Shown: positions 22,266 through 45,552 of the stretch, one piece after another
Numbering within the stretch: position 1 is the stretch's first letter
How the letters are laid out: each line of letters starts with the position of its first letter
Virus record (IMG/VR): IMGVR_UViG_3300042484_003756
Span: 1 to 64,000 of that record
Strand: one strand, 5' to 3'
DNA from: a virus
DNA: 64,000 bases
The notes under the pieces: generated by a model
What the model was told of the DNA's origin: nothing
The model's database searches: none
The model's input: the letters and a program-made list of their open reading frames with translations, nothing else
Position numbers and translations under genes: made by a program

Positions 22266-23576
22266 ATGACAAAAGAAGAACTGCTTAAATTAGTTGAAAA
22301 TTATGTTAAAAATGAACCTAATAAAAATTGGAGACCAGGAAAAGATCATGTACATTATGCTGGTCCTTATTTTGATCACAATGAAATAGTCAGATCTGTA
22401 TCAACTCTTTTAGATGGTTGGTTAGTATTGGGATCAGAAGCATATAAAGCTGAAAAAAAATTAGCATCATTATTTGGTAAAAATCATGCTTTATTGACTA
22501 ACTCTGGTAGCAGTTCAAATCTTCTAATGATGTCTGCTCTTAAGTCAAAAAGATATTTAAATTTGCCAGAAGGAACAAAAGTACTTACTCCTATAGCTGG
22601 TTTTCCCACTACAATAAATCCAATTTTTCAATGTGGATTTAAGCCTGTATTTGTTGATATTTCTTTAGATGGATTAAATTTAAATCTTGATGACGTTGAA
22701 GCTACATTGCAAGCTGATCCAGAAATTAAAATTATTACATTTGCCCACGTATTAGGTAATCCTCCTGATATGTATAGACTTATGGATATTATTGATCATT
22801 ATGGATTGATTTTATTGGAGGATTGTTGTGATGCTTTGGGGTCATTATTCGATGGCAATCCTTTGGGTAGCTTTGGCACTATGGCTTCTTGTTCTTTTTA
22901 TCCTGCTCATCATATTACTTGTGGAGAAGGCGGATTAGTTGTTTGTAATGATGACAACTTGGAAAAAGTAATTCGTTCTTTCAGAGATTGGGGACGTGGA
23001 TGTTTTTGTATTGGCAAACAAAATATCACTGAATGTGGAGCTTGTAATCAAAGATTTTCAGAATGGCTACCAAGTATGCCAGGAGAAGTTTTTGACCATA
23101 AATATGTTTACGAAGAAATTGGTTATAATCTTAAACCAATTGAAGTTCAAGCTAGTATGCTTCTTACTCAGATTGATAAGCTTTCTGAAATTAAAAGATT
23201 GCGACAAAGAAATCATAAATTATTATCAGAAATATTCCGAAAATATGAAGAACATTTTGTTCTTCCTATAGCTCAAAAAAATTCTGATGTTAACTGGTTT
23301 GCTTTTCCTGTTACAATTAAAGATAATGCGCCTTTTAAAAGAAGCGATATATGTCAATACTTAGAATCAAAGAAAATTCAAACTAGGCCATATTTCGCTG
23401 GTAATATATTGATGCAACCAGCCTACAGTCATTTAGTTGGAGACATGGATCTAAATGATTTTCCAGTTGCTAAAAAAGTAACAACTGATACATTCTTTTT
23501 AGGAACATCACCCGTTATAACTGAAGAGCAGATTGAGTATATAGGAGTTATCATAGATGGATTTTTCAAAAAATGA
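22266..23576 (+). CDS. rfbH-like: RfbH/E1-like CDP-6-deoxyhexulose 3-dehydratase (PLP and iron-sulfur)
   Basis: 436 aa, near the RfbH length of about 437. It has the DegT/DnrJ/EryC1/StrS fold (NSGSSSNLL, EDCCDALGS), but the PLP lysine position in SFYPAHHITCGEGG is His215, as in the E1 3-dehydratase. C188, C246, C248 and C257 (C-x57-C-x1-C-x8-C), with C260 nearby, resemble the E1 [2Fe-2S] motif C-x57-C-x1-C-x7-C. E1 removes the C3 hydroxyl from CDP-4-keto-6-deoxyglucose with a partner reductase (E3), which I do not see in the window. The gene overlaps the next by 20 bases. Dehydratase rather than aminotransferase is well supported; the nucleotide carrier is inferred. Confidence 0.9.
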   Translation: MTKEELLKLVENYVKNEPNKNWRPGKDHVHYAGPYFDHNEIVRSVSTLLDGWLVLGSEAYKAEKKLASLFGKNHALLTNSGSSSNLLMMSALKSKRYLNLPEGTKVLTPIAGFPTTINPIFQCGFKPVFVDISLDGLNLNLDDVEATLQADPEIKIITFAHVLGNPPDMYRLMDIIDHYGLILLEDCCDALGSLFDGNPLGSFGTMASCSFYPAHHITCGEGGLVVCNDDNLEKVIRSFRDWGRGCFCIGKQNITECGACNQRFSEWLPSMPGEVFDHKYVYEEIGYNLKPIEVQASMLLTQIDKLSEIKRLRQRNHKLLSEIFRKYEEHFVLPIAQKNSDVNWFAFPVTIKDNAPFKRSDICQYLESKKIQTRPYFAGNILMQPAYSHLVGDMDLNDFPVAKKVTTDTFFLGTSPVITEEQIEYIGVIIDGFFKK

Positions 23577-25399: not shown

Positions 25400-26569
25400 C
25401 TAATAGTTTAACACCTCGAGCAACTTAATAATTTTTTCTTTCACAAGCCCAGGATAATTTCCAATATACCAAGAGAAGTTATGAATATGTTCAATATTAG
25501 GATAGTTTGAAAAATCATTATAGACAGACTTGAAAAAAGGCTGTCTCATTTGATTTCCACCACCAGACAATCCTCTTCTAAACTCTATGCCATTATTTTT
25601 AAGTTGTCTTTCCAAATCATTTCTTTTTGTAAAGTCTGATTCTTTTAAAATTACAATAAAAGCATAATTACAATTTCCCTCAGTATTTAAGGCAATATGA
25701 TATTTTGTAGGATCTAAATTTGATATAAATAGATCAAAATTTTCTCTTCTTTCTTGATTTTTATTATCAAGCTTAGGAAGTTGAGAAAGTCCTATAACAG
25801 CGTTGATTTCTGTGCTTCTAAAATTATGAGCTGGTCTAAGAAAAATAAAGTCTGGATTAAGATCAGGATTATCCATAGCAATAGAAATTTTCATAGTATC
25901 GCTTGTCATCTCTCTAGTCATACCATGAGATCTTAGAGCACGACAAACTTGATAAAATTCCCAATCATTTGTAGATATCATGCCACCTTCAATAGTAGAC
26001 ATGTGGTGCGCAAAATAAAAACTAAAATTGCTAGCAAAACCAAAATTCCCAACTTTACGTCCTTGGAAAGTTGTTCCATGAGACTCACAAACATCTTCAA
26101 TTAGTAAAATGTTATTATCTTTACATATTTTCAAAAGATCATTAGTTAGACCATTTATACCTAAAACGTGAGTAAGGAATATTGCTTTTGTATTGGGATT
26201 GATAGCAGATTTTAATTTCTCAATATCAAATGAAAGATTTGTTAAGTTTACATCAACAAATACTAATTTATGTCCAGCAAAAAGGACTGAAGAAATATCT
26301 GAAATCCAAGTAAGGGGTGGAACAATAATTTCTCCTTCACCTACTAAATGAGCTAAAGCAAGCATTGTTAATTCATTTGCAGAAGCTCCAGAGTTGACAA
26401 ATAAATTATATTTTGTACCAAGCCATTCACCCCAAGCATTTTCAAATTCAACAACTTTTGGTCCATTTGTTAATTTTGGAATTTTATCTTGTGACAAAAA
26501 ATCTATAACAGAATTGATGTCTTCTCTGTCTATATTGTCATTCATTAATGGTAAGAAAAATTTATCCAT
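25400..26569 (-). CDS. ColD-like PLP-dependent sugar 3-dehydratase
   Basis: 389 aa, matching the size of ColD (388 aa). DegT/DnrJ fold motifs are present (FVNSGASANEL, EDVCESHGT), but the PLP lysine is replaced: SFYFAHHMSTIEGGM has H188, the same residue number as the catalytic His188 of E. coli ColD. ColD converts GDP-4-keto-6-deoxymannose to the 3-deoxy sugar without an iron-sulfur cluster. No cysteine cluster is seen here. It follows the TPP-enzyme pair, one base after its stop. The substrate could be a different nucleotide sugar. Confidence 0.88.
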   Translation of the reverse strand: MDKFFLPLMNDNIDREDINSVIDFLSQDKIPKLTNGPKVVEFENAWGEWLGTKYNLFVNSGASANELTMLALAHLVGEGEIIVPPLTWISDISSVLFAGHKLVFVDVNLTNLSFDIEKLKSAINPNTKAIFLTHVLGINGLTNDLLKICKDNNILLIEDVCESHGTTFQGRKVGNFGFASNFSFYFAHHMSTIEGGMISTNDWEFYQVCRALRSHGMTREMTSDTMKISIAMDNPDLNPDFIFLRPAHNFRSTEINAVIGLSQLPKLDNKNQERRENFDLFISNLDPTKYHIALNTEGNCNYAFIVILKESDFTKRNDLERQLKNNGIEFRRGLSGGGNQMRQPFFKSVYNDFSNYPNIEHIHNFSWYIGNYPGLVKEKIIKLLEVLNY

Positions 26570-26570
26570 T

Positions 26571-27107
26571 TTATTTCTCGTTGTAGTAATCGCCCCATTC
26601 TACTAGGACTGTAGGTCTATTGTCAGTGCGTAAATATGCATATTTGTATGCTTCAAAGATTTGATCAGCATCGTCCAATCTTATTATATCTATAAAATCA
26701 CACATTGCTCTAAATCCACCTGTAAAGTCTGCAATGTGTTGATGTTGAGGATGTAATGGTCTTTGAGAACCAATAGAAGTTCTGATAATAATTTTTGGCT
26801 TATATCCACCATGGGACATAAGTTTAATTTTATCTACATGGTTGACAAGTTGATTTGCAGCTAGTAAAAGAAAATTCCATCTAGGGTATAGAGAAATAGG
26901 TACTGTGCCATTAAGTGCCAAACCTAACGTCACACCCATTTGCATATCTTCATTAACTGGCATTTCTAGCAACTTTGATTTTTCAATATTGGTCAAAGTA
27001 TTTGTCATAGCTGTACCCGGATATTCGACAGCTTGGCCAATAAAAATTGTATCCTGCTGTTCTCCAAGCCATTCCATAGATTTTTTTAATTCATCAAAAT
27101 ATTTCAT
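26571..27107 (-). CDS. TPP enzyme Pyr-domain subunit (E1 beta/transketolase C-half like), short
   Basis: 178 aa. VNEDMQMGVTLGLALNG carries the glutamate that activates the aminopyrimidine of TPP, and YPRWNFLLLAANQLVNHVDK and RTSIGSQRPLHPQHQHIAD match the E1 beta/transketolase Pyr domain. The C-terminal transketolase domain (about 130 residues) is missing. It starts at the TAATG overlap with the partner subunit at 27107. The two together would form a minimal alpha/beta enzyme transferring a 2-carbon or acyl unit. Confidence 0.85.
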   Translation of the reverse strand: MKYFDELKKSMEWLGEQQDTIFIGQAVEYPGTAMTNTLTNIEKSKLLEMPVNEDMQMGVTLGLALNGTVPISLYPRWNFLLLAANQLVNHVDKIKLMSHGGYKPKIIIRTSIGSQRPLHPQHQHIADFTGGFRAMCDFIDIIRLDDADQIFEAYKYAYLRTDNRPTVLVEWGDYYNEK

Positions 27108-27712
27108 TAAAATTGAATCCTCTTTCCAGCTCCAGCGTGAGGATAAATTGACTCATACTGATAATAAATAACTTTCTCTCTTGGTTGTTGAAAAAATAAA
27201 ACTTCAGAATTCCAAACTTTTCTTGTTTCTGTGCAAACAGATTTGTTATTGTCTTCAACAATAAAAGTTATAGGCAAGTTATGATTGACTGCATATTTCC
27301 AGTTTTCAAAAAATGCACCAGTTTCAGAAGCCATATCTCCCACAAAACACCAAACATGACCTGATTCATTTTTGATTTTTTTATCTACAGCAACTCCTAC
27401 TGATATAGGAATACTACCAGTAACAATTGCTGAAGAATAGATATTAAACTCAGGATAACATAAAGTAATTGAATTACCATCTAAAATATCTTGACGTAAC
27501 CTATCTTTAGGAACCCCTTTTAATAAACACTGATAATGTGATCTCCAAGTACAAAATATCCAATCTTCATCTTTAATTTTTTCGAAAATCTCAATAATTT
27601 TTGCTTCATTGCCTGAATACAAATGAATAGGAGCTTTTATGATTCCATTATTGAAACATTCTCCAATTTCTGTTTCAAAATCTATCAAATCTTGCTTGCT
27701 GTATTTAGTCAT
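27107..27712 (-). CDS. TPP enzyme PP-domain subunit (E1 alpha-like), short
   Basis: 201 aa. The TPP/Mg motif GDMASETGAFFENW...VEDNN corresponds to the GD-x(24-28)-N motif of E1 alpha and transketolase N-halves. VTGSIPISVGVAVDKK is the preceding conserved segment. Normal E1 alpha subunits are about 330 aa, so this is a shortened form. The pair is followed by the ColD-like dehydratase and the kinase, suggesting that the 2-carbon chemistry acts on or before the deoxysugar. A TATAAT-type box about 30 bases upstream (minus strand near 27746) and AGAGGC as RBS may start the unit. Confidence 0.85.
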   Translation of the reverse strand: MTKYSKQDLIDFETEIGECFNNGIIKAPIHLYSGNEAKIIEIFEKIKDEDWIFCTWRSHYQCLLKGVPKDRLRQDILDGNSITLCYPEFNIYSSAIVTGSIPISVGVAVDKKIKNESGHVWCFVGDMASETGAFFENWKYAVNHNLPITFIVEDNNKSVCTETRKVWNSEVLFFQQPREKVIYYQYESIYPHAGAGKRIQF

Positions 27713-27751: not shown

Positions 27752-29272
27752 TTATCTTTCCAACTTTACTAATAGCATTTTTTCAATTGATTCAACAGCT
27801 CTTGGTCCATAAATGCTTTGGATTTTATCTTTAAAGCTCTGGTTCGAGTGATATTCATGAAAAGCATCATCTCTGAATTTTAAAATTTGATCTCTCGATA
27901 AATTTTCATGAATAACAGGTAAAGTTTTCTTTCCTAAAAAAGAATATTCTTCATATTCCTTAGGTAGTATTGAATTATTATCATAAGCCTCTTTATAAAT
28001 TTTACTACCAGGTAAAGCGATTGCAGGATATCCATTCCATCCACAAGTATTAAGTTTTTTTGAAAAATCTAAAGTTTCTTGCATTGTCTCCAAACTATCA
28101 CCAGGAAGACCAAAAATATAATTTGCCATAACTTGAATACCAGAGTCTTCAACTTGCTTTACGACTTTTTCAATATCTACATCTTCAAATTTGCCTTTAG
28201 TTACCTCTAATCTTACAGTTTTGTTGGCACTCTCGATTCCAAGAGCTAGCCATTTGATTCCAGCTGATTTGACTAAACTCAAAATCTCAGGATTTCTTAC
28301 AGTATCAATTCTGGAATATGCCCACATTCTAAACTCAGCGCCCATTCCAGATTCTGTAATCAAACTGCAAAGAGGTTCGTAATATTTTTTATTAAGTAAA
28401 AACATTTCATCTGTAATTTTGATTGTTCTTACTCCTAAGTCATAAAGTTTTTGAAACTCTTTAAAAATAAATTCTGGAGACCAAAATCTCATTTTTGAAT
28501 AATTGCTAGCAACACCAATTTCTTCATTATCATTTCTGTTTATAATATTAATCATACAAAATGAGCAGCCAAATTGACAGCCTAATGAAGTTTGAATTGC
28601 AGCATAAGGCGACCTGTTCTCATCAATGTACTCAGCATGCCAATATGGTGATCGATATAAATCTAAAGGCTTTTCTTTAAATGGAAGTAAGTCCCAAGCG
28701 TATCCTGGTAGATCTGTATCCATTTTTTCGTTTGGTACTATTTGTTCTGGATCATTAAAAATAATTTCTCCATCTTTTCGCCAAGCTATACCTTTAATAT
28801 CTTCTAAGTTTTCAAGATTGATATCTGTCTTCAAAATGTTTCTTAATGCATAAACACCTTCATTCATAAAAATAAAATCAATAGATTTCTCTTCAGTCAA
28901 AGTCTTTTTAGGCAGTGCTTGAACATAGGAGCCAACATATGAAATAGGTGTTTTTAATCCAGAATTTTTGATATATTCAGAAAATTTGACAGAATCAGTC
29001 ATTGATACTGTGCCAGAATTGACATTTTGACCATAAACAACAAAACATATCAACCTTGGATTTTTTTGTTCAATTCTTTTTAATCCTTCTTCAAAAGATA
29101 AATTTTCTGCATTCATATCGAGAATTGCAACTTTATAATCTACTGAACGGCAAGATTGAGCTAAAAGCAATGACCAAGTTGGAGGCTCAATAGCAGCTAA
29201 ATTATTAGCCAAACTTTGATAAACTATGTTAGATCCACCTGGATTTACAAACAAAACGTCTAAATTATTCAT
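27752..29272 (-). CDS. B12-binding-type radical SAM enzyme
   Basis: 506 aa. Residues about 1-180 look like a cobalamin-binding Rossmann domain (VLFVNPGG, PTWSLLLAQSC, YVGSYVQALPKKT), although I do not see a clear DxHxxG motif. The radical SAM domain has SLGCQFGCSFCMI, a CxxxCxxC cluster motif, near residues 226-238. Such enzymes often methylate unactivated carbons or rearrange carbon skeletons. A role in branching or methylating the island's sugar is an inference from context. The 164-base AT-rich gap upstream (29273-29436) probably holds the promoter (TATAAA near 29288 on the minus strand). Confidence 0.85.
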   Translation of the reverse strand: MNNLDVLFVNPGGSNIVYQSLANNLAAIEPPTWSLLLAQSCRSVDYKVAILDMNAENLSFEEGLKRIEQKNPRLICFVVYGQNVNSGTVSMTDSVKFSEYIKNSGLKTPISYVGSYVQALPKKTLTEEKSIDFIFMNEGVYALRNILKTDINLENLEDIKGIAWRKDGEIIFNDPEQIVPNEKMDTDLPGYAWDLLPFKEKPLDLYRSPYWHAEYIDENRSPYAAIQTSLGCQFGCSFCMINIINRNDNEEIGVASNYSKMRFWSPEFIFKEFQKLYDLGVRTIKITDEMFLLNKKYYEPLCSLITESGMGAEFRMWAYSRIDTVRNPEILSLVKSAGIKWLALGIESANKTVRLEVTKGKFEDVDIEKVVKQVEDSGIQVMANYIFGLPGDSLETMQETLDFSKKLNTCGWNGYPAIALPGSKIYKEAYDNNSILPKEYEEYSFLGKKTLPVIHENLSRDQILKFRDDAFHEYHSNQSFKDKIQSIYGPRAVESIEKMLLVKLER

Positions 29273-32773: not shown

Positions 32774-33574
32774 ATGAATAATAGAGAATTTGAATGTGTA
32801 AGAATTCTTACAGACTTGGTTGAAAATTATGGACTTGTTGGAATTAAAACAAGTTTTGAAGATGAAGGTGCAAGTTTCAATGAAGTTCTCAGACTTAAAG
32901 AAATTTGTAATCAATCAAAAACCAAAGTTACATTAAAGATTGGTGGTCCAGAAGCCATAAGAGACATCAAAGATTCTATGATAATTGGTGTAAAAGGCTT
33001 AGTGGCTCCAATGGTTGAGTCTGAATTTGGACTTACTAAATTTATTAATGCTGTAAATAACAATTTACCTGTTGAAGTTGTCAGTTCGTTGCAGCTTAAT
33101 GTAAATATTGAAACTATTACTGCTGTTTCAAATATTGATAAAATTTTATCCAACAAGCAAGCTGAGGCATTGTATGGAGTTACTCTTGGGAGAGTTGATT
33201 TAGTTTCATCAATGGGCCTTAATAGAAATTCTGTAAATTCTGAAGACATTTACAATATTGCACACAATGTTTTTGAAAAGACAAAAAAATTAGGCGCAAA
33301 AGCTTGTGTTGGCGGTGCTGTATCTATTGATTCTTTAGATTTCTTGAAAAAACTGCACTCTGAAAAATTACTAGACAAATTTGAAACCAGATACGCAATC
33401 TTTGATCCATCTATTACATTGAAAAACTTATCAAGAGCCCTATTTAAAGCTCAAATGCTTGAATATGAATGGCTTACTAATAAGATGGAATATTATCAAA
33501 ATCAAGCTAATCAAGATGAAACTAGACTGAAAATGATTCAGTCACGCATCAATCAGTCGGCATCTGAACTTTGA
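32774..33574 (+). CDS. HpcH/HpaI aldolase/citrate lyase family protein
   Basis: 266 aa. KIGGPEA, GLVAPMVESEFGL and GRVDLVSSMGLN match the metal-binding and substrate loops of HpcH/HpaI class II aldolases (Glu in PMVES, Asp in RVD). These catalyse pyruvate or 2-keto acid aldol reactions. The stop overlaps the TTG start of the next gene (TTGA). In context it may make or cleave a carbon-carbon bond in a keto sugar. Confidence 0.8.
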   Translation: MNNREFECVRILTDLVENYGLVGIKTSFEDEGASFNEVLRLKEICNQSKTKVTLKIGGPEAIRDIKDSMIIGVKGLVAPMVESEFGLTKFINAVNNNLPVEVVSSLQLNVNIETITAVSNIDKILSNKQAEALYGVTLGRVDLVSSMGLNRNSVNSEDIYNIAHNVFEKTKKLGAKACVGGAVSIDSLDFLKKLHSEKLLDKFETRYAIFDPSITLKNLSRALFKAQMLEYEWLTNKMEYYQNQANQDETRLKMIQSRINQSASEL

Positions 33575-34209
33575 GAGTACTTGTCACTGGTGGATCAAGA
33601 GGAATTGGTAAAGATATTTGTGACAAGTTTAAAAATGAAGGTCATGAAGTTATATCCCCATCTCGTGAAGAACTTGATTTATCTAAACCTTTTTTATTTA
33701 CTCCTGAAAAGATTGACATACTAGTAAATAATGCTGGAATCAATATAGTAGATTCTATCTTTGAAGGTGAGAATTACGAAGAATTAATGACAGTAAATTA
33801 TTTCTCGCCTTTAAGATTATTCAAGCTTTGTTTGCCTTATATGAAGAAGCAAAACTATGGAAGAATTATCAACATAGGAAGTGTTTGGATTGATTATGCA
33901 AAACCTGGAAGATCCTCATATAGTGCTAGTAAAAATGCCTTACACTCTCTTACAAAAGCTATAACTGCTGAGTATGGTACTTATAATATTTTGGCAAATA
34001 CTGTGTCTCCAGGGTTTTTTATTACAGATATGACTTTTAAAAATAATACAGAAGAAGATTTGAAAGATTTAAGAAGTAAAATTCCACTTGGTAGATTAGG
34101 ATATACAAATGAAGTTGCAGATTTAGTATATTTTTTGAGTATACAAAATTCATATATATCTGGGCAAAATATAGTTATAGATGGTGGTTACTCATGTACA
34201 GCCAAATAA
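33571..34209 (+). CDS. Short-chain dehydrogenase/reductase (FabG-like)
   Basis: 212 aa from a TTG start that overlaps the upstream TGA. VTGGSRGIGKDI binds NAD(P), LVNNAGIN is the SDR NNAG motif, IGSVW gives the catalytic serine and YSASKNALHSL gives Tyr and Lys. It would reduce or oxidise a keto intermediate. It overlaps the cyclase gene by 16 bases. Confidence 0.9.
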   Translation: MRVLVTGGSRGIGKDICDKFKNEGHEVISPSREELDLSKPFLFTPEKIDILVNNAGINIVDSIFEGENYEELMTVNYFSPLRLFKLCLPYMKKQNYGRIINIGSVWIDYAKPGRSSYSASKNALHSLTKAITAEYGTYNILANTVSPGFFITDMTFKNNTEEDLKDLRSKIPLGRLGYTNEVADLVYFLSIQNSYISGQNIVIDGGYSCTAK

Positions 34210-35240
34210 ATGTTAAATCAAAAATTAAAGATTATTCTGTAAATTTTGTAAGCTTAAGTGAGATACATAAACTAATTGGTGAAGATTATCATCTTGCAGT
34301 AGTTGACAAGAATGTTGCTAATTATTTTCCTAAATTTTATTTAGGTGATGTTATAGTTTTAGACACAGATGAAGACTTAAAATCATGGCGTGGTTTAGAA
34401 AAAATATTTGACGAATTTGCTGCAAAAAAAGTCAATACACAAACTAAACTCATAGTCATTGGTGGCGGAGTATTACAAGATGCAGTTGGTTTTTGCGCTT
34501 CTGTTTATTGTAGAGGTATTGAGTATTATCTAGTTCCAACAACATTACTTTCTCAGATAGATAGCTGTGTTGGTGGAAAAACTTCTATCAATTATGGTTC
34601 GAGAAAAAATATTCTAGGCACATTTTATCCTCCAAAAGAAATTCTTATTTGCGAAGATTGGCTTTACGGTTTAAATAAAGAAAACTTTTGTAGTGGATTG
34701 GGAGAACTCTTTAAGTTTGATATTTTAAGGAATAAAATTCAAGAATCAAAAGTTAATGAACTAATTTCTGGAAATGAAAATGTTTTGCATCACATTTATG
34801 AAAGTCTAAAATATAAAATTTCTATTTTAGAAATTGATGAGTTTGATAAAAAAGAAAGAAAATATCTAAATTTTGGACATACATTTGGACATGCATTAGA
34901 AATAACTTCAAATTATAAGTTATCGCATGGATATGCAGTTGTAATTGGTTGCTTGATAGCATTGAAAATTAGTGTAGATTTGTTTGATTACAATAAAGAA
35001 GACTTTACTTTAGCATTAAATTTGGCAAAAAATATATTAAAAAATACCATTAATATAGAAGAAAATTGGTTTGATTATGATTCACTAATGGAATGTGTAA
35101 AATCAGACAAGAAAAATACTGGCTGTTTAAATATGGTGCTTCTAAAAGACAATAATCCAGTAATTCAAAAAATTGATGATTATTCTATAATTAAAGAGGC
35201 ACTGGTAAATGTTTATGAAGCTCTCAGATTATGTAATTAA
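34194..35240 (+). CDS. 3-dehydroquinate synthase-like sugar phosphate cyclase
   Basis: 348 aa. VIGGGVLQDAVGF, VPTTLLSQIDSCVGGKT and GHTFGHALEI carry the NAD, phosphate and metal-binding features of the AroB fold. The product in this setting is unlikely to be dehydroquinate for aromatic synthesis, since no other shikimate genes are present. Related cyclases make carbocycles such as 2-deoxy-scyllo-inosose or valiolones. It overlaps both neighbours, so it belongs to the HpcH-SDR-cyclase-TPP unit. Confidence 0.88.
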   Translation: MYSQINVKSKIKDYSVNFVSLSEIHKLIGEDYHLAVVDKNVANYFPKFYLGDVIVLDTDEDLKSWRGLEKIFDEFAAKKVNTQTKLIVIGGGVLQDAVGFCASVYCRGIEYYLVPTTLLSQIDSCVGGKTSINYGSRKNILGTFYPPKEILICEDWLYGLNKENFCSGLGELFKFDILRNKIQESKVNELISGNENVLHHIYESLKYKISILEIDEFDKKERKYLNFGHTFGHALEITSNYKLSHGYAVVIGCLIALKISVDLFDYNKEDFTLALNLAKNILKNTINIEENWFDYDSLMECVKSDKKNTGCLNMVLLKDNNPVIQKIDDYSIIKEALVNVYEALRLCN

Positions 35241-36939
35241 ATTTCTTCACGATAACTATGACGTTGATACAATTTTCACTTTATCAGGTGGAGGATGTAT
35301 ACATTTAATAGATTCTCTTGGTAAATCAGAAGATGTAAATTACATAGCAACTCACCACGAACAAGCTGCAGCAATTGCAGCTGAGGGATATGCACGTAAG
35401 AAAAATAAACTTGGTGCCTGTCTTGTAACTTCTGGACCTGGCGGAACTAATGCTCTTACTGGAACTCTTTGCAGTTTTTTGGATTCAATACCAGTAATTG
35501 TAATAAGCGGACAAGTCAACAAACCATTAACAACAAATTTTACAAATCTTAATCTAAGACAACTTGGAGATCAAGAATTTGACATTGTAAAGACAGCTAA
35601 AACAATGACAAAATATGCTGTTCAAGTTAACAATCCTGACGAGATTAGATATCATTTAGAGAAAGCTTGTTATTTAGCAACAAATAAAAGACCTGGACCT
35701 GTTTGGGTAGATATTCCATTAGACGTACAATCTGCTCAAATTGATGTATCTAGCCTTAAGCCTTTTACACCAAGCCCATCTGATTACCAGACCAATGAAT
35801 ATGATTATGTTTCAATTATTGAAAGATGGAATAATTCAAAAAAACCATTATTAATTGTTGGTAACGGAGTAAGACTCTCTGGTGCCGTAGATTCTTTATT
35901 TGATTTATTAGATAAGACCAGCATACCTGTAATCACGGCTGTCAATGGAAATGATATTGTCAATGAATCTTATCCTTACTATTATGGTAGGTTTGGTACT
36001 CATGCTCAAATATGCGCAAATAAATTAATAAATGAAGCTGATTTTATCCTTTCTATTGGGTCAAGATTATATATAAGACAAATAGGATATAACTTTGATG
36101 ATTTTGGAAAAAATGCATATAAAGTAGCCGTAGACATTGATCAAAATGAACTAGATAAGCCTACTTTAAGACTTGATGAAAAGATTTGTGAAGATGCTAA
36201 AAAATTTATAAACAATTTGAATGAAGTTTTCATAAAAAAATGTTCTGAAGATTGGTTGCAGCATTGTGAAACATTTAAAACTTTAAAAGTCTTAGACAAG
36301 CATAGAGATAAAAAAGACTTTGTGAGCAACTATTATCTGATTGAAAAATTATCTCAAATTTTACCGCAAGATTATGACATTGTTACAAGTGACGGTTCTG
36401 CAAATGTAATTACTATGCAAGTGATCGAACTTAAAGACAATCAAAGACTTATAACTAATACTGGCTGTGCTCCAATGGGATATGGTTTACCCTGTGCTGT
36501 AGGAGTTGCTTCTACTGGTCAAAAAACATTGTGTATTGAAGGCGATGGTAGTTTACATTTAAATATCCATGAATTACAAACAATGATGCATAATAATCTT
36601 CCAATCAAATTATTATTGTTGAATAATGATGGATATTTGTCAATTAAAGTTACACAAAAAACTTTTTTCAATGGTCATTATGTTGCTTCAGAAAAATCTA
36701 GTGGAGTGTCTTTTCCTGATTTTAAAAAAATAGCAGATGCTTATAGTATTCCATATTTTGAAATTAAAACAAATAATGAAGTTGATAAAGTTTTAGATAA
36801 TTTTTTAAACTTTGAAGGGCCTTGTTTTTGCCAAGTATTTACCGATCCCAATGAAATTTTTGAACCTAGAGTAGTTGCAAAAATGGATGAAAATGGCAAG
36901 TTTATTCCAGGTCGATTATCCGAAGCTCAATGGAGTTAA
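35209..36939 (+). CDS. Acetolactate-synthase-like TPP enzyme (YerE/IolD-like)
   Basis: 576 aa; the start may be 35209 or the ATG at 35215. The TPP catalytic glutamate is E51 in THHEQAAAIAAEGYAR; SGPGGTNALTG and IEGDGSLHLNIHELQTM (GDG motif) match the AHAS family. Relatives include YerE, which adds a two-carbon acetyl branch to a CDP-4-keto-3,6-dideoxysugar, and IolD, which acts on an inositol dione. Both fit this island. It overlaps the cyclase gene by 26-32 bases and is followed by an SDR. Confidence 0.88.
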   Translation: MFMKLSDYVIKFLHDNYDVDTIFTLSGGGCIHLIDSLGKSEDVNYIATHHEQAAAIAAEGYARKKNKLGACLVTSGPGGTNALTGTLCSFLDSIPVIVISGQVNKPLTTNFTNLNLRQLGDQEFDIVKTAKTMTKYAVQVNNPDEIRYHLEKACYLATNKRPGPVWVDIPLDVQSAQIDVSSLKPFTPSPSDYQTNEYDYVSIIERWNNSKKPLLIVGNGVRLSGAVDSLFDLLDKTSIPVITAVNGNDIVNESYPYYYGRFGTHAQICANKLINEADFILSIGSRLYIRQIGYNFDDFGKNAYKVAVDIDQNELDKPTLRLDEKICEDAKKFINNLNEVFIKKCSEDWLQHCETFKTLKVLDKHRDKKDFVSNYYLIEKLSQILPQDYDIVTSDGSANVITMQVIELKDNQRLITNTGCAPMGYGLPCAVGVASTGQKTLCIEGDGSLHLNIHELQTMMHNNLPIKLLLLNNDGYLSIKVTQKTFFNGHYVASEKSSGVSFPDFKKIADAYSIPYFEIKTNNEVDKVLDNFLNFEGPCFCQVFTDPNEIFEPRVVAKMDENGKFIPGRLSEAQWS

Positions 36940-36940
36940 T

Positions 36941-37768
36941 ATGAAGAAAATTTTGATTACTGGTAGTAATGGATATGTTGCTAGAAATATAGCAAAAAAT
37001 TTATGTAATTATGATTTGACATTTACAGAAAGATCAAATTTAAACTTACTAGATCCTAAAACTGTAAAAAATTTTTTCAAATATAATTATTTTGATGTAG
37101 TAATACACACTGCAACTTCAGGTGGAAGCAGACTTGAAAAAGATAATTCAGATGTGTTTTTTGAAAATTGCATTATGCATCAAAATATTTTAGATAATGC
37201 CTCTTCATTTGATAAATATATATCTTTTGGGTCAGGAGCTGAATTAGACAGAAGATATGACATAGATCCTTCTGTAGATATTAAAAGTTCATTTCCGATT
37301 GATCCTTATGGTATGAGTAAAAATTTTATAGCAAAATCAGGTCTTTTATATCCAAATTTTCACAACATAAGGATATTTAATGTATTTAATGAAGATGAAT
37401 TGTCTACAAGAATGATAAAAGCAAATATAATTAATTACATAAATAAAAAACCAATAGTAATTCATCAAGACAAATGGATGGACTTTTTTTACATGAATGA
37501 TTTATGTGAAGTTTTAAAATTTGTTATTGATTCAAACTCACCACAAAAAATTATTAATTGTTCATATCAAGAAAAATACAAACTTAGTACAATAGCTGAA
37601 ATAATCAATCAATTATCTAATTACAAAGTTGATATTGTAATAGAAAGCAATTCTTTTGGTCTAAATTATTACGGTGATTACAATTTGCATTTATTTGATA
37701 TGGATTTATCTGGATTGCATTTAGGTATAACAAATACATACAATAAATTAAGGAATGAATTAAATTGA
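36941..37768 (+). CDS. NAD-dependent sugar reductase/epimerase (extended SDR)
   Basis: 275 aa from the ATG at 36941, with GGAG five bases upstream. The longer reading from 36875 overlaps the TPP gene and lacks a site. ITGSNGYVARNI binds NAD; YGMSK is the Tyr-Lys pair; MDFFYMNDLC is typical of sugar SDRs. It resembles RmlD and GDP-fucose synthase-type reductases. It may reduce the keto group left after the carboligation step. Its stop overlaps the next start (TTGA). Confidence 0.8.
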   Translation: MKKILITGSNGYVARNIAKNLCNYDLTFTERSNLNLLDPKTVKNFFKYNYFDVVIHTATSGGSRLEKDNSDVFFENCIMHQNILDNASSFDKYISFGSGAELDRRYDIDPSVDIKSSFPIDPYGMSKNFIAKSGLLYPNFHNIRIFNVFNEDELSTRMIKANIINYINKKPIVIHQDKWMDFFYMNDLCEVLKFVIDSNSPQKIINCSYQEKYKLSTIAEIINQLSNYKVDIVIESNSFGLNYYGDYNLHLFDMDLSGLHLGITNTYNKLRNELN

Positions 37769-38565
37769 AAAACCTATTAGTGAATTTTTCTGTTGGAGAT
37801 AAATGTATTGACTCATTAGAGGGGGATGTATTTCTAAATTCTCTATCAAAATTTAATACATTCGAAAAGGCTGTATTTGTAAGTAACGTAAGCCCAGCAA
37901 ATATTAAGAAGCTTGAGAAATATTTCGATATTGTAATTCCTAATAATGAAAATTTGTATACAAGTTATCTGGCATTATATAACTGGCTATCGGAACACGT
38001 TGATGAATATAAGTATGTAATGCATTCTGATTTAAGAGATGTTGTAATTCAAAAAGATCCTTTTAGTTTTTTTGAGTCAAATCCTGAAATCAATATGTTT
38101 TACTCTTTAGAAGGTATGAAAATAATTGAAAATGATTGTAACTTATGGTGGGAGCAAAATCTTAGAACAATTTTAAGATCACACAATGGTTCTTACGAAA
38201 ATGAGTATGTAATCAATGGCGGAATTTTTGGTGGAAAAATTGAGCATATGATAAACCATTGTTTGATGATGTTTTCAAACACTAATAGAAAATCTCAATT
38301 TTTAGTAATGGATCAACAGTTTTTAGGATACTTAAGTCAATATCTTAAGATGAATCCTAAAAATATGCTTTGTCACCCTTATAAAGATACTTTTGCTTGT
38401 ACTGGGGAAGCAATAAAGAGAGACAATGTTGAAGTTTATTTTGATGGAACTTATGTAACCAATAAGGACGGAGAACCTTATTGTATTTTTCATCAGTGGG
38501 ATAGAACTGAATTAGCAAAGCATTTTCAAAGTAAAGAATTAAACACCTTGCGATTCTCTCTCTAA
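37765..38565 (+). CDS. GT-A-like glycosyltransferase
   Basis: 266 aa from a TTG start overlapping the previous TGA. HSDLRDVV at about residues 89-96 fits a DxD-type metal motif, YVINGGIFGG and VMDQQFL fit the acceptor and catalytic segments of GT-A enzymes. It is the last plus-strand gene of the island and probably transfers the finished sugar. It overlaps the convergent tail gene by 27 bases. Confidence 0.65.
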   Translation: MKNLLVNFSVGDKCIDSLEGDVFLNSLSKFNTFEKAVFVSNVSPANIKKLEKYFDIVIPNNENLYTSYLALYNWLSEHVDEYKYVMHSDLRDVVIQKDPFSFFESNPEINMFYSLEGMKIIENDCNLWWEQNLRTILRSHNGSYENEYVINGGIFGGKIEHMINHCLMMFSNTNRKSQFLVMDQQFLGYLSQYLKMNPKNMLCHPYKDTFACTGEAIKRDNVEVYFDGTYVTNKDGEPYCIFHQWDRTELAKHFQSKELNTLRFSL

Positions 38566-40766: not shown

Positions 40767-42262
40767 TAATAACTTCCTGTCGGTTTTAGTACTGGGTCAA
40801 ATGTATAGTTTTGAGTTGCTACTGAAAAATTTACTTTACTCTTCTGATAATTCATTTTAGAATGTTCTTGTGACTCGGTTGACCACACTACTTCAGGTAA
40901 CTCTAGTTTAATTGGTCCCATATCAAAAGTTATACCATCATTATTTATGCTACTTGGTCCAGATAAAAACTCAACCATTGCCCAAGGTTTCATAGGTCCA
41001 GTATAGGTAATTGATCCTGAAATTTTACGTCCTTCAGAATAATATCCATAAGGTAATGAATTCTTGAAAAAATTTAACTTTTTATCACTATTTTTGCTAT
41101 TTAAAGTAAATATTGGTTTCAAATTATTTTCAATGCTTATAGACATTTCAGTAACATATATACTATCCAATTGTGATTGTTGAAATCCTCTAAAAAGTTT
41201 AGAATCTAAAATGCCACCTAAGCCAAACAATCCATATTCTGGAGCACTTTTGTAAACTCTGACGTTATAACCATTAAGAATATAACTTGGTTTTTTCTTA
41301 AAATAATTTTCTACAATTGAGGTAAAATTGTTGAACATTTGTACTTGATAAGTTCTATCAACATTCAATACTTTTAATTCAATATTGGCAACTATTTGCT
41401 CTCCTGGAATAAAGCTTATTGTAAACTTGTCAACTAAACATCCACTTAATAAGCCTTGTTTTAAAGTAAATAATGAGAATGATGCTTCTTTTCCGTTAGA
41501 TTGTGGATAAGCAGAAATATAGGAAGTGTCTCTATTGAATCCGACATTAACTCCAGCACCAATGGTAAGCAATCTATCAGCTTTATTAATAGCAGTGACT
41601 GTTACCAAGTCATAACTTGTGTTTGTGTCGGATTTTATTTTTGCTTGAAAAGGTAAAGATAGTCCCATAAATTCGGAAATATTATCAATATAAAGCTGAC
41701 TTGTTCCAGCTGTTATGGTAGAAGCATTATCAGTTGTAAATCTACCTATAAATGAAGTTGGAGAACCTTTGAAAGCTTCAATGCAATAATCAAAAAAAGC
41801 AGCTAAAGAGAAATCTAAATATCCCCAGCTATCAACTTTGAAAGGATATGTAAAACTAACAACATATTCTTTTGGTCCTAATTGAAATGTATTTGGATTT
41901 ACCCCTTCACCTGCGTATCTTTGTCCAGCATCAGAATCTTGAGTTCCTTGCATATTAAAACTATCAATTGAAAATAAATAGTTCGTATTGATATTTGAAA
42001 ATGATAAATTGAAATCTGGATCTTCACCAAATTCTCTAGACAGTGCAAAAATATCAAAATATCCAGTTTCAAAAGCTGGCGCATATAAGTGTGAGCTAAA
42101 GTTGTTATAAGCTTCTTTATAGAGGTATTGTGATGGGAAATATTCTGAACTACCAATACTAGGAGCAATTACAGTTTGATCTACGGCAAATGCTTTAAAA
42201 TCTGATTTAAATGAACTGGCATCAATATTTTCTTTCATATCAAGCCTATGGGGTTGTTTCAA
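40766..42262 (-). CDS. Putative major tail (tube) protein
   Basis: 498 aa, beta-rich. A repeated pattern of strands, the KISGSITYTGP segment and the SIENNLKPIFTLNSKN stretch fit a tail-tube subunit with a long insertion. The length exceeds that of typical tube proteins (200-300 aa). The gene overlaps the end of the 816-aa protein by 17 bases. No sheath gene is seen, which fits a non-contractile tail. Identity is inferred from fold pattern and neighbours. Confidence 0.5.
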   Translation of the reverse strand: MKQPHRLDMKENIDASSFKSDFKAFAVDQTVIAPSIGSSEYFPSQYLYKEAYNNFSSHLYAPAFETGYFDIFALSREFGEDPDFNLSFSNINTNYLFSIDSFNMQGTQDSDAGQRYAGEGVNPNTFQLGPKEYVVSFTYPFKVDSWGYLDFSLAAFFDYCIEAFKGSPTSFIGRFTTDNASTITAGTSQLYIDNISEFMGLSLPFQAKIKSDTNTSYDLVTVTAINKADRLLTIGAGVNVGFNRDTSYISAYPQSNGKEASFSLFTLKQGLLSGCLVDKFTISFIPGEQIVANIELKVLNVDRTYQVQMFNNFTSIVENYFKKKPSYILNGYNVRVYKSAPEYGLFGLGGILDSKLFRGFQQSQLDSIYVTEMSISIENNLKPIFTLNSKNSDKKLNFFKNSLPYGYYSEGRKISGSITYTGPMKPWAMVEFLSGPSSINNDGITFDMGPIKLELPEVVWSTESQEHSKMNYQKSKVNFSVATQNYTFDPVLKPTGSY

Positions 42263-44696
42263 TAGTTATAAGATCGTAAATATCCCATAAAATTGGACCA
42301 TTGTTTATTCTTGTTACATCTGTTCCAGGTGTTACATAAGCGTCCAAAATTCTATCAAATACTTGTAAATCATTTCCTAATTCAAATCTTTGATTTCTTG
42401 CTGTGCCTTTTGGAACTGTAGTGGTAAGTGTTGTAGGCTCACCATTTTCACCATTCTGTGCAATAACTGTTACAACTAAATCGTTTTTAATTGTTTGATC
42501 ATCTGTTGTAGCAATTCCCGTTGTAGAACCATTGAAAATAATATTTGAAGAAGATAGATCATCTACGTAAGGAACATAAACTGATATTTTTCTAGATTCA
42601 AGTGAGACTCTATTTGTAAGCTTCATTCCACGTCTTAAAATTTCACCAGATATATTTCCGTCATCTAGGTATCCTCTAAACTTGTAATAAGCTGTTCCTC
42701 CAGTGCCAGTCCAAGAAGATCCACTATTTACAGATGTCAAACCTTGTCCAGAACTTCCTGAAATAACTCTAGTGTAAAGAGCTGTGGACCCTAAGCCAGT
42801 TGAAAAGTCTGACGGCTTGTTCAAAATCAACCAATAAGTAGTGCCTTGTAGAAGATTGGCTCCAGTGCTGAATTTTACAGTATATTCGTTTGTGCCCTGT
42901 AGAATATCTGAATTTCTTATAACTGAAGCGCTTGTGATCATTCCATTGGGCGTTGGTGTTGATCCAGTCGCAGAGTAAATTGATATAGATAAACCTGTTG
43001 TTCCAGATCCAGTAGATTGACCACCAGCAGAATATTTTAATTTAAGAGTAACTCCACCAACAAAACAATTTTCATTTGGTGTAATCTTAAACGCTGATAA
43101 TCCGTTTCTTAAAACTAAATCAGAATCATCAACTATTGAAGTCATTGTATTGTAAGATGGGTACTGAATTTCATTAATATTAGTAAGCTTTCTTTCAATC
43201 AAATCGCTACTCAATTGTGGTTTTTTGTAGACGTGATAGAAAAGTGGATTTGTTATACCAGCACCTGACCAATTTAATTCAACTAGATAATTACTTGTAG
43301 TGAAATTTGAAGAAACAAGATTGCTATATACCGGAATGCTTTCTACATATTCATCTGTCGAAATATTGTAAACAATTGTTGTTCCATAAATTTGAGTCCC
43401 AGATGACAATGAAGATATATAGTTAGAACAAGGAATAACTAAATTTGTAAATCCTGTTGCAGCTGCTGTATTATTACTTCCAATTGCGGCATTGTAAGTT
43501 ATTAGATCGCCTCTAAAAATAGCAAATGTGTGCTGAACGTCAGATCCTACAGTTTCGTAATAGGCTTTGGAGAAATTGTAAGGCAGTTCAAATCTTTCAA
43601 GTCCACTAAAAGATAAACCCTTAGAATAGAATTCTGTTTTTCTAAAAGGCTGCGTGGCTAACAATTCTCTATTAGTTTGACTTGAATTGAAAGATACAGT
43701 ACTTAGATATCTATAAACTGCAGATACTGTGTTTGAAACATAATCATTTGATTGATAAGCAGTTAGTGCTTCATTTGCGTTAGTGCAACTTTCAATAATT
43801 AAATTTTTATCGGCAGAGTCACCTAATATTTGATAAGTTGATATGTCTGTTGGCATATCAACAATAGTTCTTGTCAAGCCTGTACCTGAGTCTACTACTA
43901 CTGGATTTTCAGGATTTTTAACCATTACCTTACTTATAGGAATCCAGCTTTGAGGTAGTGGAGGAAAATAATCAAAATTATTTATATTTTCAGAAGTTTC
44001 TAAGACTGGAAAACCTGTAATAAATTTGACTCTTGGTTGAAATAAGAAAGTGACAGGATTATCAAGATAATAGGTGACAGGTAATGTTCCGAAAGAAGAC
44101 CCGTTATAGTATGAAGGATCAACTATCAATCCTGTCATATCATCTGTAGTATTTGAAAAAGTTATCAAATAGTTTCCAACAAATGCTTGAATAGGAAAGC
44201 CTAAATTCTTAGCAATTGTTGCATCTTTTACATACAAAATACTTGTTCCAGATAAACAAGTTGTGCTTACAGTTGTTGCCCAAGTTTGAGTTGCTTTTTT
44301 TACTTCAGAAATTGGTAAACCTAAAGTTACACCGTATTTATAACTTGCACCAAATCCACCTGAAGAATAATTTTTAGACCACTCTTTTTTTAACGGAATT
44401 TTTTGTGGTTGTAAATTAAATACGGATCCATTGTAAGCAACTTGTCCGCTTCTTACCGTTACATAATAAGGATCAAATGCAATGTCATAAGTTGTTTCGC
44501 ATCCTAAAGGAGCAGTTTCAAGAATACCAAAATATGGAGATCCATTATTTGCCATTGAAAGTAAATTATTTATTTCAAATATAGAAGAACCAGGAGTATC
44601 AATATCTCCAATGCCATAATTCAAAGCATCGTAAATATTACCTACTGTTTTTGTTAATTCAAGAACTATCTCTTCAACTTTTGATGATATTGCCAT
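42246..44696 (-). CDS. Large beta-rich tail protein, baseplate or fibre
   Basis: 816 aa. An N-terminal helical segment is followed by repeated beta domains with many Thr, Ser, Gly and Asn residues. A module at about 530-680 (SAFKITPN ... YWLIL ... YYKFRGYLDD) is also found in the 1567-aa protein. It is a candidate fibre or baseplate wedge. No catalytic motif. Confidence 0.65.
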   Translation of the reverse strand: MAISSKVEEIVLELTKTVGNIYDALNYGIGDIDTPGSSIFEINNLLSMANNGSPYFGILETAPLGCETTYDIAFDPYYVTVRSGQVAYNGSVFNLQPQKIPLKKEWSKNYSSGGFGASYKYGVTLGLPISEVKKATQTWATTVSTTCLSGTSILYVKDATIAKNLGFPIQAFVGNYLITFSNTTDDMTGLIVDPSYYNGSSFGTLPVTYYLDNPVTFLFQPRVKFITGFPVLETSENINNFDYFPPLPQSWIPISKVMVKNPENPVVVDSGTGLTRTIVDMPTDISTYQILGDSADKNLIIESCTNANEALTAYQSNDYVSNTVSAVYRYLSTVSFNSSQTNRELLATQPFRKTEFYSKGLSFSGLERFELPYNFSKAYYETVGSDVQHTFAIFRGDLITYNAAIGSNNTAAATGFTNLVIPCSNYISSLSSGTQIYGTTIVYNISTDEYVESIPVYSNLVSSNFTTSNYLVELNWSGAGITNPLFYHVYKKPQLSSDLIERKLTNINEIQYPSYNTMTSIVDDSDLVLRNGLSAFKITPNENCFVGGVTLKLKYSAGGQSTGSGTTGLSISIYSATGSTPTPNGMITSASVIRNSDILQGTNEYTVKFSTGANLLQGTTYWLILNKPSDFSTGLGSTALYTRVISGSSGQGLTSVNSGSSWTGTGGTAYYKFRGYLDDGNISGEILRRGMKLTNRVSLESRKISVYVPYVDDLSSSNIIFNGSTTGIATTDDQTIKNDLVVTVIAQNGENGEPTTLTTTVPKGTARNQRFELGNDLQVFDRILDAYVTPGTDVTRINNGPILWDIYDLITIETTP

Positions 44697-44697
44697 T

Positions 44698-45552
44698 TTA
44701 TATATTTATACTCAACTCTGATGATAGATAGGATAAAAGTCTGCTTGGTAAAAGTTGATTAGAATTTTGCCAATAAGATTTAAAATCTGGCTCCCAAGTT
44801 GAATTTCCTGCCCAATTTTCAATAATTTCTTTTGTTAAATTTTTCTGTGTATTATATTGTTCTGAAATTATTACATAATTTCTTATAATTGAACCAACTA
44901 CTATTTTAGAAATATTCTCTTCCGTATATCCAAAGTATCCTCTTGGTAATCTTTCATCTATAAGTTTGAAAAATACTCTAGAGTTTTTTATCGTCCCATC
45001 GTAATAAGAAACGTCTGCAATGAATTTATAAATTTCTAATTGATAAGTTTTATTTGTAGTAAAAGATAACTCTTGAGATGTTTTTATAATCTCTTCAGCA
45101 GTAGTAATATCTATGTCTTTACTTATAATAAGAGGACTACCGCTAGGGTCACTTTTTGGTCTTGCTAAAGAAAATGTAAGTTCTTCTCCCTCTGAACTAT
45201 CAGAGGTTAAAAATACTTTTCCAAATATGTAACCGTCTGACATTATGTCAAGATTTCCTAATATTTGTTGAATCGTATAACCTTGTTCGTTACCTGTAGG
45301 AAGTTCTATATTTGAAGTAGATAAAGCTGTCTTAACAAGTCCTTTGCCAAAACTTAAAACATCTAAAACCATATTGAAGTTTTGTGATTTTATAGCTGAT
45401 AATCCATACAATAACTGTAAATTTCGCTCAACTGTATTATTTGACAAAGCATATTCTTGAGAAGCTAAAGCAATATCTACAGTTTTTTCTGTTTGGTCTA
45501 AAGCAAGCACTAGATTATTCATTGTGATTGCTGACGCATAATTCATTGCCAT
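44698..45552 (-). CDS. Hypothetical tail-operon protein
   Basis: 284 aa with a helical N-terminus (about 110 residues) and a beta-rich C-terminal part. 'GKGLVKTALSTSN' is one of few K-T-A motifs in the tail operon. It lies between the two large beta-rich proteins. No family recognised. Confidence 0.65.
   Translation of the reverse strand: MAMNYASAITMNNLVLALDQTEKTVDIALASQEYALSNNTVERNLQLLYGLSAIKSQNFNMVLDVLSFGKGLVKTALSTSNIELPTGNEQGYTIQQILGNLDIMSDGYIFGKVFLTSDSSEGEELTFSLARPKSDPSGSPLIISKDIDITTAEEIIKTSQELSFTTNKTYQLEIYKFIADVSYYDGTIKNSRVFFKLIDERLPRGYFGYTEENISKIVVGSIIRNYVIISEQYNTQKNLTKEIIENWAGNSTWEPDFKSYWQNSNQLLPSRLLSYLSSELSINI

What the first reader, a model, noticed from the sequence alone, without database searches (positions are those of the whole stretch)
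32774..38565. Overlapping HpcH aldolase, SDR, AroB-like cyclase, YerE-like TPP enzyme, SDR and glycosyltransferase
Seen: six genes with overlapping starts and stops (TTGA, 16-base, about 30-base, TTGA), hence one coupled pathway. Known: AroB-fold cyclases make carbocycles, and AHAS-like enzymes include YerE (two-carbon sugar branching) and IolD (cyclitol dione). Inferred: a phage-encoded route to a cyclitol-type or branched residue that is then transferred by the last gene. I cannot name a known pathway with this set.
Basis: partly seen in the sequence, partly recalled or inferred. Interest (0 to 1): 0.8.

Follow-up and report, generated by a model that had tools for sequence, protein, structure and literature searches.

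The report
Phage cassette building carbon-branched sugars
A bacteria-infecting virus from the environment carries a conserved set of enzyme genes that most likely builds an unusual sugar with a long carbon side branch, and viruses and bacteria swap one enzyme pair in that set for a phosphatase, which hints at what an uncharacterised relative of an aromatic-amino-acid pathway enzyme does.

Summary
The six genes are real and lie where stated; four of five junctions overlap. They are a conserved module: HpcH-SDR1-AroB-TPP-SDR2, usually after a dehydratase, recurs in 39 of 58 viral loci found with HpcH. The TPP enzyme is YerE-like: its best solved relative is JanthE (8rph), far above acetolactate synthases. 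Bacteroidota carry the same genes beside RfbF-RfbG-RfbH. In both phages and bacteria SDR1+AroB alternates with a phosphatase-like gene. Best reading: HpcH (or NeuB) makes a phosphorylated 2-oxo-3-deoxy acid; AroB+SDR1 process its phosphate end where others use a phosphatase; the TPP enzyme adds the chain to a keto sugar as a long branch (erwiniose/caryophyllose type). Whether AroB deoxygenates or cyclises is open: all 16 DHQ-synthase active-site positions checked are kept. 'Cyclitol' is unproven; 'YerE-like branching' is well supported. New variant of a known kind.

The parts
22266..23576 (+). RfbH-type NDP-4-keto-6-deoxyhexose 3-dehydrase; would make the 3,6-dideoxy-4-keto acceptor
   Evidence: NCBIfam NF011936 440.2 bits > cut-off 423; PAHH and GRGCFC/CGAC motifs, 61% to RfbH of phage locus L034
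31811..32764 (+). dTDP-glucose 4,6-dehydratase-like SDR; would make the 4-keto-6-deoxy sugar
   Evidence: TIGR01181 293.9 bits (below cut-off 365.1), CDP type TIGR02622 only 56.5; relative at >=55% identity near HpcH in 48 of 56 viral loci
32774..33574 (+). HpcH/HpaI-fold protein; inferred pyruvate aldolase making a 2-oxo-3-deoxy acid
   Evidence: Pfam 39 bits > 25; model pLDDT 95.9 matches class II pyruvate aldolases; E113, D142, K55 invariant in 53 of 53 rows
33571..34209 (+). SDR1, classical short-chain ketoreductase, fixed partner of the AroB-like gene
   Evidence: Pfam; S-Y-K triad in 39 of 39 rows; next to AroB in 10 of 10 Bacteroidota TIGR04425 loci
34194..35240 (+). AroB-like cyclase/phospholyase, nearest NCBIfam model TIGR04425
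   Evidence: TIGR04425 304 bits (cut-off 400), aroB 245 (cut-off 305); 16 of 16 DHQS active-site positions kept
35209..36939 (+). YerE/JanthE-like ThDP carboligase
   Evidence: Pfam TPP N/M/C; best PDB 8rph 1e-138 versus AHAS 1e-93; Glu51 in 52 of 52 rows
36941..37768 (+). SDR2, extended SDR, inferred reductase of the branch ketone
   Evidence: Pfam Epimerase 2e-19; S, Y, K in 47, 47 and 46 of 48 rows; kept in both module types
37765..38565 (+). putative glycosyltransferase, only in near relatives
   Evidence: PHROG 1579 6e-5; present in 4 of 56 viral loci; 5 viral relatives found

Best explanation
The genes are a phage-borne branched-sugar cassette. (1) Dehydratase (31811) and RfbH (22266) turn a host NDP-glucose into NDP-4-keto-3,6-dideoxyhexose (inferred from families; RfbH passes its cut-off, the dehydratase does not). 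(2) HpcH joins pyruvate to an aldehyde phosphate, giving a 2-oxo-3-deoxy-4-hydroxy acid phosphate (inferred; in one bacterial relative a NeuB-type enzyme stands in this place). If the AroB-like step is to work on it, the acid should be seven-carbon, so erythrose-4-phosphate is the likely aldehyde (inferred from AroB chemistry). (3) The phosphate end is dealt with in one of two exchangeable ways: a HAD-like phosphatase, or AroB+SDR1 (exchange of genes shown; chemistry inferred). My preferred reading of AroB+SDR1 is a phospholyase/deoxygenation: AroB oxidises and expels phosphate as DHQ synthase does, the ring-opened 6-keto-7-deoxy acid is reduced by SDR1, leaving a CH3-ended donor. (4) The YerE-like TPP enzyme decarboxylates the donor and adds the remaining acyl chain to C4 of the keto sugar. 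(5) SDR2 reduces the branch ketone. The product would be a caryophyllose- or erwiniose-type sugar, probably put on the virion or host surface. The confidence below is for the module reading (steps 1, 2, 4, 5 and the shared phosphate slot); given that, I put the deoxygenation reading of AroB+SDR1 at about 0.4, ring closure after ligation at 0.25, a DHQ-like acid at 0.2.
For: TPP: best solved relative is JanthE, a YerE-like ketone-accepting carboligase; ErwE prefers 4-hydroxy-2-oxo acids, MMAR_2332 has a similar preference, JanthE also takes 4-hydroxy-2-oxovalerate (PMC12247030, PMC12188165 passages) - the kind of acid an HpcH aldolase makes. Bacteroidota loci with the module carry RfbF, RfbG and RfbH (above cut-offs in L085; by BLAST in others). 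Exchange: of 62 loci complete over this stretch, 45 have SDR1+AroB+TPP and 17 HAD+TPP (L057 is counted in the 45, see against). Swaps: Bacteroidota L085 vs L086 share RfbF 83, RfbG 77, RfbH 81, TPP 86, HpcH 83% but differ in SDR1-AroB vs HAD; phages L034 vs L023 share RfbH 95, dehydratase 89, HpcH 94, SDR2 87% but differ in HAD vs SDR1-AroB. The type changes at least 8 times on the HpcH tree (quick tree). L135 has TPP-SDR1-AroB with NeuB and its genome gave no HpcH match. Caryophyllose is 3,6-dideoxy-4-C-(1,3,4,5-tetrahydroxyhexyl)hexose (PMC5706390): C2' deoxy as from pyruvate, CH3 end as from 7-deoxygenation. K250/R264 (carboxylate binders of DHQ synthase, recalled) are kept in 38 of 38 module AroBs, which fits a substrate still bearing its carboxylate, i.e. 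before TPP.
Against: No product or activity is known for any gene here. HpcH has Lys55 where HpaI (recalled) has catalytic Arg70, and scores far below NCBIfam aldolase cut-offs. DHQ synthase normally cyclises; nothing in the residues says this one does not, and the NCBIfam name says 'cyclizing'. In phages the TPP changes with the type (49% identity L034 vs L023), so type A and B donors may differ more than at one end. L057 has a short HAD-like gene, NeuB, TPP and a divergent AroB together, so exclusivity is not absolute. The phage HAD-like gene has no Pfam match and rests on a DxDG motif and PHROG 1238, which is labelled phosphoheptose isomerase. RfbH at >=45% was near HpcH in only 33 of 56 viral loci. 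A Novosphingobium plasmid has HpcH with RfbF/RfbG but no YerE-like TPP near it. Four of ten Bacteroidota TIGR04425 loci have no TPP.
Confidence: 0.6

Rival explanations
1. Carbocycle after ligation: the TPP enzyme first attaches the phosphorylated chain; the AroB-like enzyme then closes it to a six-membered ring, and SDR1 reduces the ring ketone, giving a sugar carrying a cyclitol.
For: All cyclase residues kept; SDR1 always with AroB (10 of 10); nearly the same TPP goes with HAD or AroB in Bacteroidota (86%), so the phosphate step could follow ligation.
Against: Closing the ring consumes the branch ketone, yet SDR2 stays 87% identical between a type-A and a type-B phage; carboxylate binders K250/R264 would have no carboxylate left to bind; AroB+SDR1 also occurs without TPP (L131-L134).
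Confidence: 0.15
2. AroB-like makes a DHQ- or quinate-like cyclic acid (with SDR1) from the HpcH product, and the TPP enzyme separately makes a yersiniose-like acetyl branch from pyruvate; the two parts end in one glycan.
For: Full DHQ-synthase residue set; AroB+SDR1 with a canonical HpcH aldolase but no TPP in L132-L134; TPP type changes with AroB/HAD in phages.
Against: HAD in the same slot would then leave a plain keto acid with nothing to use it; linkage with TPP in all 62 complete HpcH loci; the Lys197 state differs between TPP-linked cyclases and those without TPP.
Confidence: 0.12
3. An ordinary DHQ synthase carried by the phage to boost the host's shikimate pathway, next to unrelated sugar genes.
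For: All 16 active-site positions as in four DHQ synthases taken as references.
Against: Below the AroB cut-off; the 42 phage/Bacteroidota sequences stand apart from the four reference DHQ synthases (99*, quick tree with long-branch warnings); bacterial relatives have a second AroB-type match (10 of 10); tight linkage to SDR1, HpcH and TPP.
Confidence: 0.06

Closest known systems
YerE-like branched-sugar pathways (yersiniose, erwiniose, caryophyllose; enzymes YerE, ErwE, MMAR_2332, JanthE)
   Same: Same ThDP enzyme type; acceptor genes RfbF/G/H beside it in Bacteroidota; hydroxy-keto acid donors known for ErwE and MMAR_2332.
   Different: An AroB-like + SDR pair inside the module, exchangeable with a phosphatase-like gene; HpcH or NeuB as inferred keto-acid source; phage-borne with a dTDP-type dehydratase. 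The review PMC12247030 has no 'dehydroquinate' or 'phage' and no aldolase in this role (term search).
NCBIfam TIGR04425 'AroB-related putative sugar phosphate phospholyase (cyclizing)'
   Same: Best NCBIfam match of the window cyclase; Bacteroidota module member passes the cut-off (452 > 400).
   Different: Window protein is below the cut-off (304); the family is a 'hypothetical equivalog' of unknown reaction.
3-dehydroquinate synthase (AroB)
   Same: Family fold and all 16 checked active-site positions.
   Different: Score below AroB cut-off, gene context, separate AroB-type gene in bacterial carriers of the module.
Class II pyruvate aldolases HpcH/HpaI, YfaU, SbnG
   Same: Fold (Z 18-19.5), Glu/Asp metal ligands aligned.
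   Different: About 15% identity, Lys55 in place of the catalytic Arg (recalled numbering), far below aldolase cut-offs.

Membership tests
YerE-like ThDP carboligases | three-domain decarboxylase-superfamily ThDP enzyme | tested here: met
   Pfam TPP_enzyme N, M, C
YerE-like ThDP carboligases | closer to a characterised YerE-like enzyme than to AHAS | tested here: met
   8rph (JanthE) 466 bits vs AHAS II 317 bits
YerE-like ThDP carboligases | linked to genes for an NDP-4-keto-(3,6-di)deoxyhexose | tested here: met
   RfbH in window above cut-off; RfbF/G/H in Bacteroidota; but RfbH near HpcH in only 33 of 56 viral loci
YerE-like ThDP carboligases | keto acid + ketone carboligation | not testable with these tools
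   needs an enzyme assay
3-dehydroquinate synthase (TIGR01357) | curated score cut-off 305 | tested here: not met
   245.3 bits
3-dehydroquinate synthase (TIGR01357) | active-site residues | tested here: met
   16 of 16 positions in 38 of 38 module sequences, counting Asp for Glu at one position
TIGR04425 | curated score cut-off 400 | tested here: not met
   window 304.1; Bacteroidota relative L085 451.9
HpcH/HpaI aldolase | Pfam gathering score 25 and TIM-barrel fold | tested here: met
   39 bits; Foldseek 7et9 1.2e-9, VIA Z 18.7
HpcH/HpaI aldolase | metal-binding Glu and Asp | tested here: met
   E113 and D142 align with the ESK and PAD segments of YfaU and are invariant in 53 of 53 rows
HpcH/HpaI aldolase | catalytic Arg (HpaI R70, recalled) | tested here: inconclusive
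   Lys55 stands at the place by my reading of the motif; no residue-level structural alignment was available
RfbH 3-dehydrase | NF011936 cut-off 423; His for Lys; Cys cluster | tested here: met
   440.2 bits; PAHH, GRGCFC..CGAC
dTDP-glucose 4,6-dehydratase (TIGR01181) | cut-off 365.1 | tested here: not met
   293.9 bits

The most novel reading that the evidence does not exclude
An AroB-family enzyme works outside aromatic and C7-cyclitol chemistry as the phosphate-removing, deoxygenating (or ring-closing) step on the carbon branch of a branched sugar, interchangeable with a phosphatase, and phages as well as Bacteroidota trade these cassettes to vary the end of the branch.
Probability: 0.4. 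Interest if true: 0.8.

Novelty: new variant of a known kind. Interest (0 to 1): 0.62.

Why it matters
It gives a testable role to TIGR04425, a curated family of unknown reaction, and suggests that the long keto-acid donors of YerE-like enzymes are made by an HpcH or NeuB step with a phosphate handled by phosphatase or AroB+SDR. It also shows phages carrying nearly the whole route to a carbon-branched sugar, which could mask virions or host surfaces, and offers a source of new C-C bond forming enzymes.

Tried and rejected
IolD-like reading of the TPP enzyme: not among the best 25 NCBIfam matches shown nor the 60 PDB rows shown; dropped. Phosphonate route (PEP mutase + phosphonopyruvate decarboxylase): considered from the barrel + TPP pairing, dropped because the HpcH profile found aldolases and the TPP is JanthE-like. 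Bradyrhizose link: genes unknown in PMC4743980 (passages), not testable here. Whether the M. marinum caryophyllose cluster holds an AroB- or HpcH-like gene: no answer in passages of PMC5706390, PMC4703794, PMC13354803, PMC12507525, PMC4403928, and no paper holds 'caryophyllose' with '3-dehydroquinate synthase'. PMC8657720 (one passage) only gives erwiniose as a 10-carbon branched sugar. HpcH relatives in named phages: none in 50,697 records. TPP relatives there are below 33% identity and, where annotated, are named acetolactate synthases. The glycosyltransferase model was too poor to search. VIA rows include pyruvate kinases at nearly the same Z as aldolases, so fold alone does not prove aldolase function. 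L071 and L072 (34% HpcH relatives) gave no HpcH match in my typing and were left out of type counts; L030, L033 and L064 are cut by contig ends. L067 has a fragmented HpcH and TPP and is counted as type B. The count put L087 and L088 aside because TPP lies over 4 kb away; one search counts them as type A. The trees are quick searches with long-branch warnings. Loci are not independent: 41 groups at 95% HpcH identity.
Full report
Observation. Overlap alone is common in this window (13 of 44 other co-directional neighbours). The window is part of a 72,759-base virus record with terminase, a portal domain and a major head protein at 20602-21456 (PHROG 2522, 2e-68). The sugar-type genes fill about 21.5-38.6 kb, straight after the head protein gene.

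Conservation. The window cyclase found 13 viral loci, seven of which hold the block HpcH-SDR1-AroB-TPP-SDR2 in order (two of them, L003 and L004, look like copies). A profile of HpcH found 58 viral loci but only one genome, Arsenicibacter rosenii, with strict patterns. Typing these 58: 39 have SDR1+AroB+TPP, 14 have a small HAD-like gene + TPP, 2 have SDR1 before the contig ends, 1 ends in HpcH, 2 gave no HpcH match. Counting the window, Arsenicibacter and seven Bacteroidota loci, 45 are type A and 17 type B among 62 complete loci. None held both by my BLAST test, but L057 holds a short HAD-like gene that only PHROG 1238 shows, beside NeuB, TPP and a divergent AroB, so it is an exception. No HpcH relative was found in 50,697 named phage records.

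Bacteria. HpcH is in 9 of 395 Bacteroidota genomes at 1e-10, one of them a weak match (G078, not followed beyond its short locus). Of the eight others, Arsenicibacter has HAD, TPP, HpcH and RfbF, RfbG, RfbH; five have TPP, SDR1, AroB, HpcH; two have TPP, HAD, HpcH. RfbF, RfbG and RfbH are all in L085, L086, L090 and L091; L088 is cut and shows none, L087 shows RfbF and RfbG but no RfbH, L089 starts in RfbH. In L085 all three pass curated cut-offs, and its cyclase passes TIGR04425. TIGR04425 itself gives a group of ten genomes at 398-452 bits, against 293 for the next; nine are over the cut-off, and each of the ten has a second match. Of these ten, five are the HpcH module, one (L135) has RfbG, RfbH, a flavin reductase, TPP, SDR1, AroB and NeuB in place of HpcH, and four have SDR1+AroB without TPP, next to a SIS-type protein (Pfam-tested in L134 only) and, in three, a canonical HpcH aldolase. 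SDR1 lies beside the cyclase in ten of ten.

What the enzymes are. TPP: best solved relative 8rph at 1e-138, next AHAS II at 1e-93. 8rph is JanthE, a YerE-like enzyme (PMC12188165, passages and abstract). The review PMC12247030 (passages) says ErwE prefers 4-hydroxy-2-oxo acids and adds a hydroxy-keto acid to CDP-4-keto-3,6-dideoxyglucose, and that MMAR_2332 (caryophyllose) has a similar donor preference. HpcH: model of high confidence, fold of class II pyruvate aldolases. Window gene 22266-23576 passes the RfbH cut-off. Cyclase: 16 of 16 active-site positions kept in all 38 module sequences, counting Asp for Glu at one. At Lys197 of DHQ synthase (recalled numbering), the cyclases in TPP clusters keep Lys (38 module rows and L135), while those in TPP-less Bacteroidota clusters (L131-L134) and in the other phage loci (L008, L009, L010, L014) have His.

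How it works. Two slots are exchangeable. In the keto-acid slot HpcH can be replaced by NeuB, which also makes 2-keto-3-deoxy acids (established for the NeuB family). In the phosphate slot SDR1+AroB can be replaced by a phosphatase-like gene, of HAD-IIA type in Bacteroidota L086 (121.9 > 100.2 bits), HAD_2 type in Arsenicibacter and a short PHROG-1238 type in phages. In Bacteroidota L085 and L086 the flanking genes are 77-86% identical and this slot differs; in phages L034 and L023 the flanks are 87-95% identical while the slot and the TPP differ. So AroB+SDR1 and the phosphatase most likely act on the same phosphorylated product. Since SDR2 is kept across types in that phage pair, the branch ketone probably survives in both, which speaks against ring closure onto that ketone. 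Since the carboxylate-binding pair is kept, AroB probably acts before the TPP enzyme removes the carboxylate. A DHQ-synthase reaction diverted from the final aldol step, followed by SDR1, would give a 3,7-dideoxy-heptulosonate; decarboxylative ligation and reduction would give the 1,3,4,5-tetrahydroxyhexyl branch of caryophyllose (structure in PMC5706390). This last chain is inference; I put it at 0.4 given the module reading. Against it: the DHQ synthase intermediate cyclises readily (recalled), and no caryophyllose cluster was checked for these genes.

Limits. No nucleotidyltransferase of Pfam PF00483 was found in the record (control 14 of 14), so the phage would depend on host NDP-glucose; its dehydratase looks dTDP-type while the bacterial clusters are CDP-type. 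RfbH was within 9 kb of HpcH in 33 of 56 viral loci, the dehydratase in 48. A Novosphingobium plasmid has HpcH (36%) beside RfbF and RfbG with no YerE-like TPP near it, only a 71-bit match about 550 kb away. An Ilyobacter relative (35%) sits in an unrelated operon with aconitate hydratase and a 2-hydroxyacid dehydrogenase, so the HpcH family is not confined to this pathway. A search for phage, acetolactate synthase, dehydroquinate synthase and auxiliary metabolic together gave 0 papers, and 'sugar phosphate phospholyase' gave 0; this covers only the open library.

Verdict. Not a chance cluster and probably not ordinary shikimate metabolism; a new variant of YerE-type branched-sugar biosynthesis, carried by phages and Bacteroidota, with the reaction of its AroB-like enzyme open and testable.

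Noticed in passing
window 25400-27712 (minus strand) with 27752-29272: A second ThDP enzyme, a split E1-alpha/E1-beta-like pair (TIGR03182 4e-26, PRK09212 2e-11), beside a DegT-family protein with His at the usual Lys place (FAHH) and a B12-binding radical SAM protein: perhaps a second sugar-branching or deoxygenation set; E1-alpha relatives also sit between dehydratase and HpcH in L032, L052 and L065.
   Followed up: partly
window 11407-13761: Mu-type portal protein match (9e-8) with a C-terminal DUF559/REase_MTES_1575 nuclease-like domain on one 784-aa ORF.
   Followed up: no
L057 10001-15539: Phage locus with HpcH, SDR1, short HAD-like protein, NeuB family protein (9e-40), TPP and divergent AroB in a row: a hybrid of the module variants.
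   Followed up: partly
L131-L134 (Bacteroidota) and L008, L009, L010, L014 (viral): AroB-like cyclases with His in place of DHQS Lys197; in Bacteroidota they sit in TPP-less clusters with SDR, SIS-type protein, Gfo/Idh-like and 2-hydroxyacid dehydrogenase-like genes and, in L134, a cytidylyltransferase: a second unexplained cyclase pathway.
   Followed up: partly
window 24279-24611 (minus): Mpo1-like (2-hydroxy fatty acid dioxygenase family) protein on a phage, Pfam 2e-29.
   Followed up: no
window 45552-50255, 42246-44696, 59294-63211: Very large ORFs (1567, 816, 1305 aa) with no PHROG match better than 1e-3.
   Followed up: no
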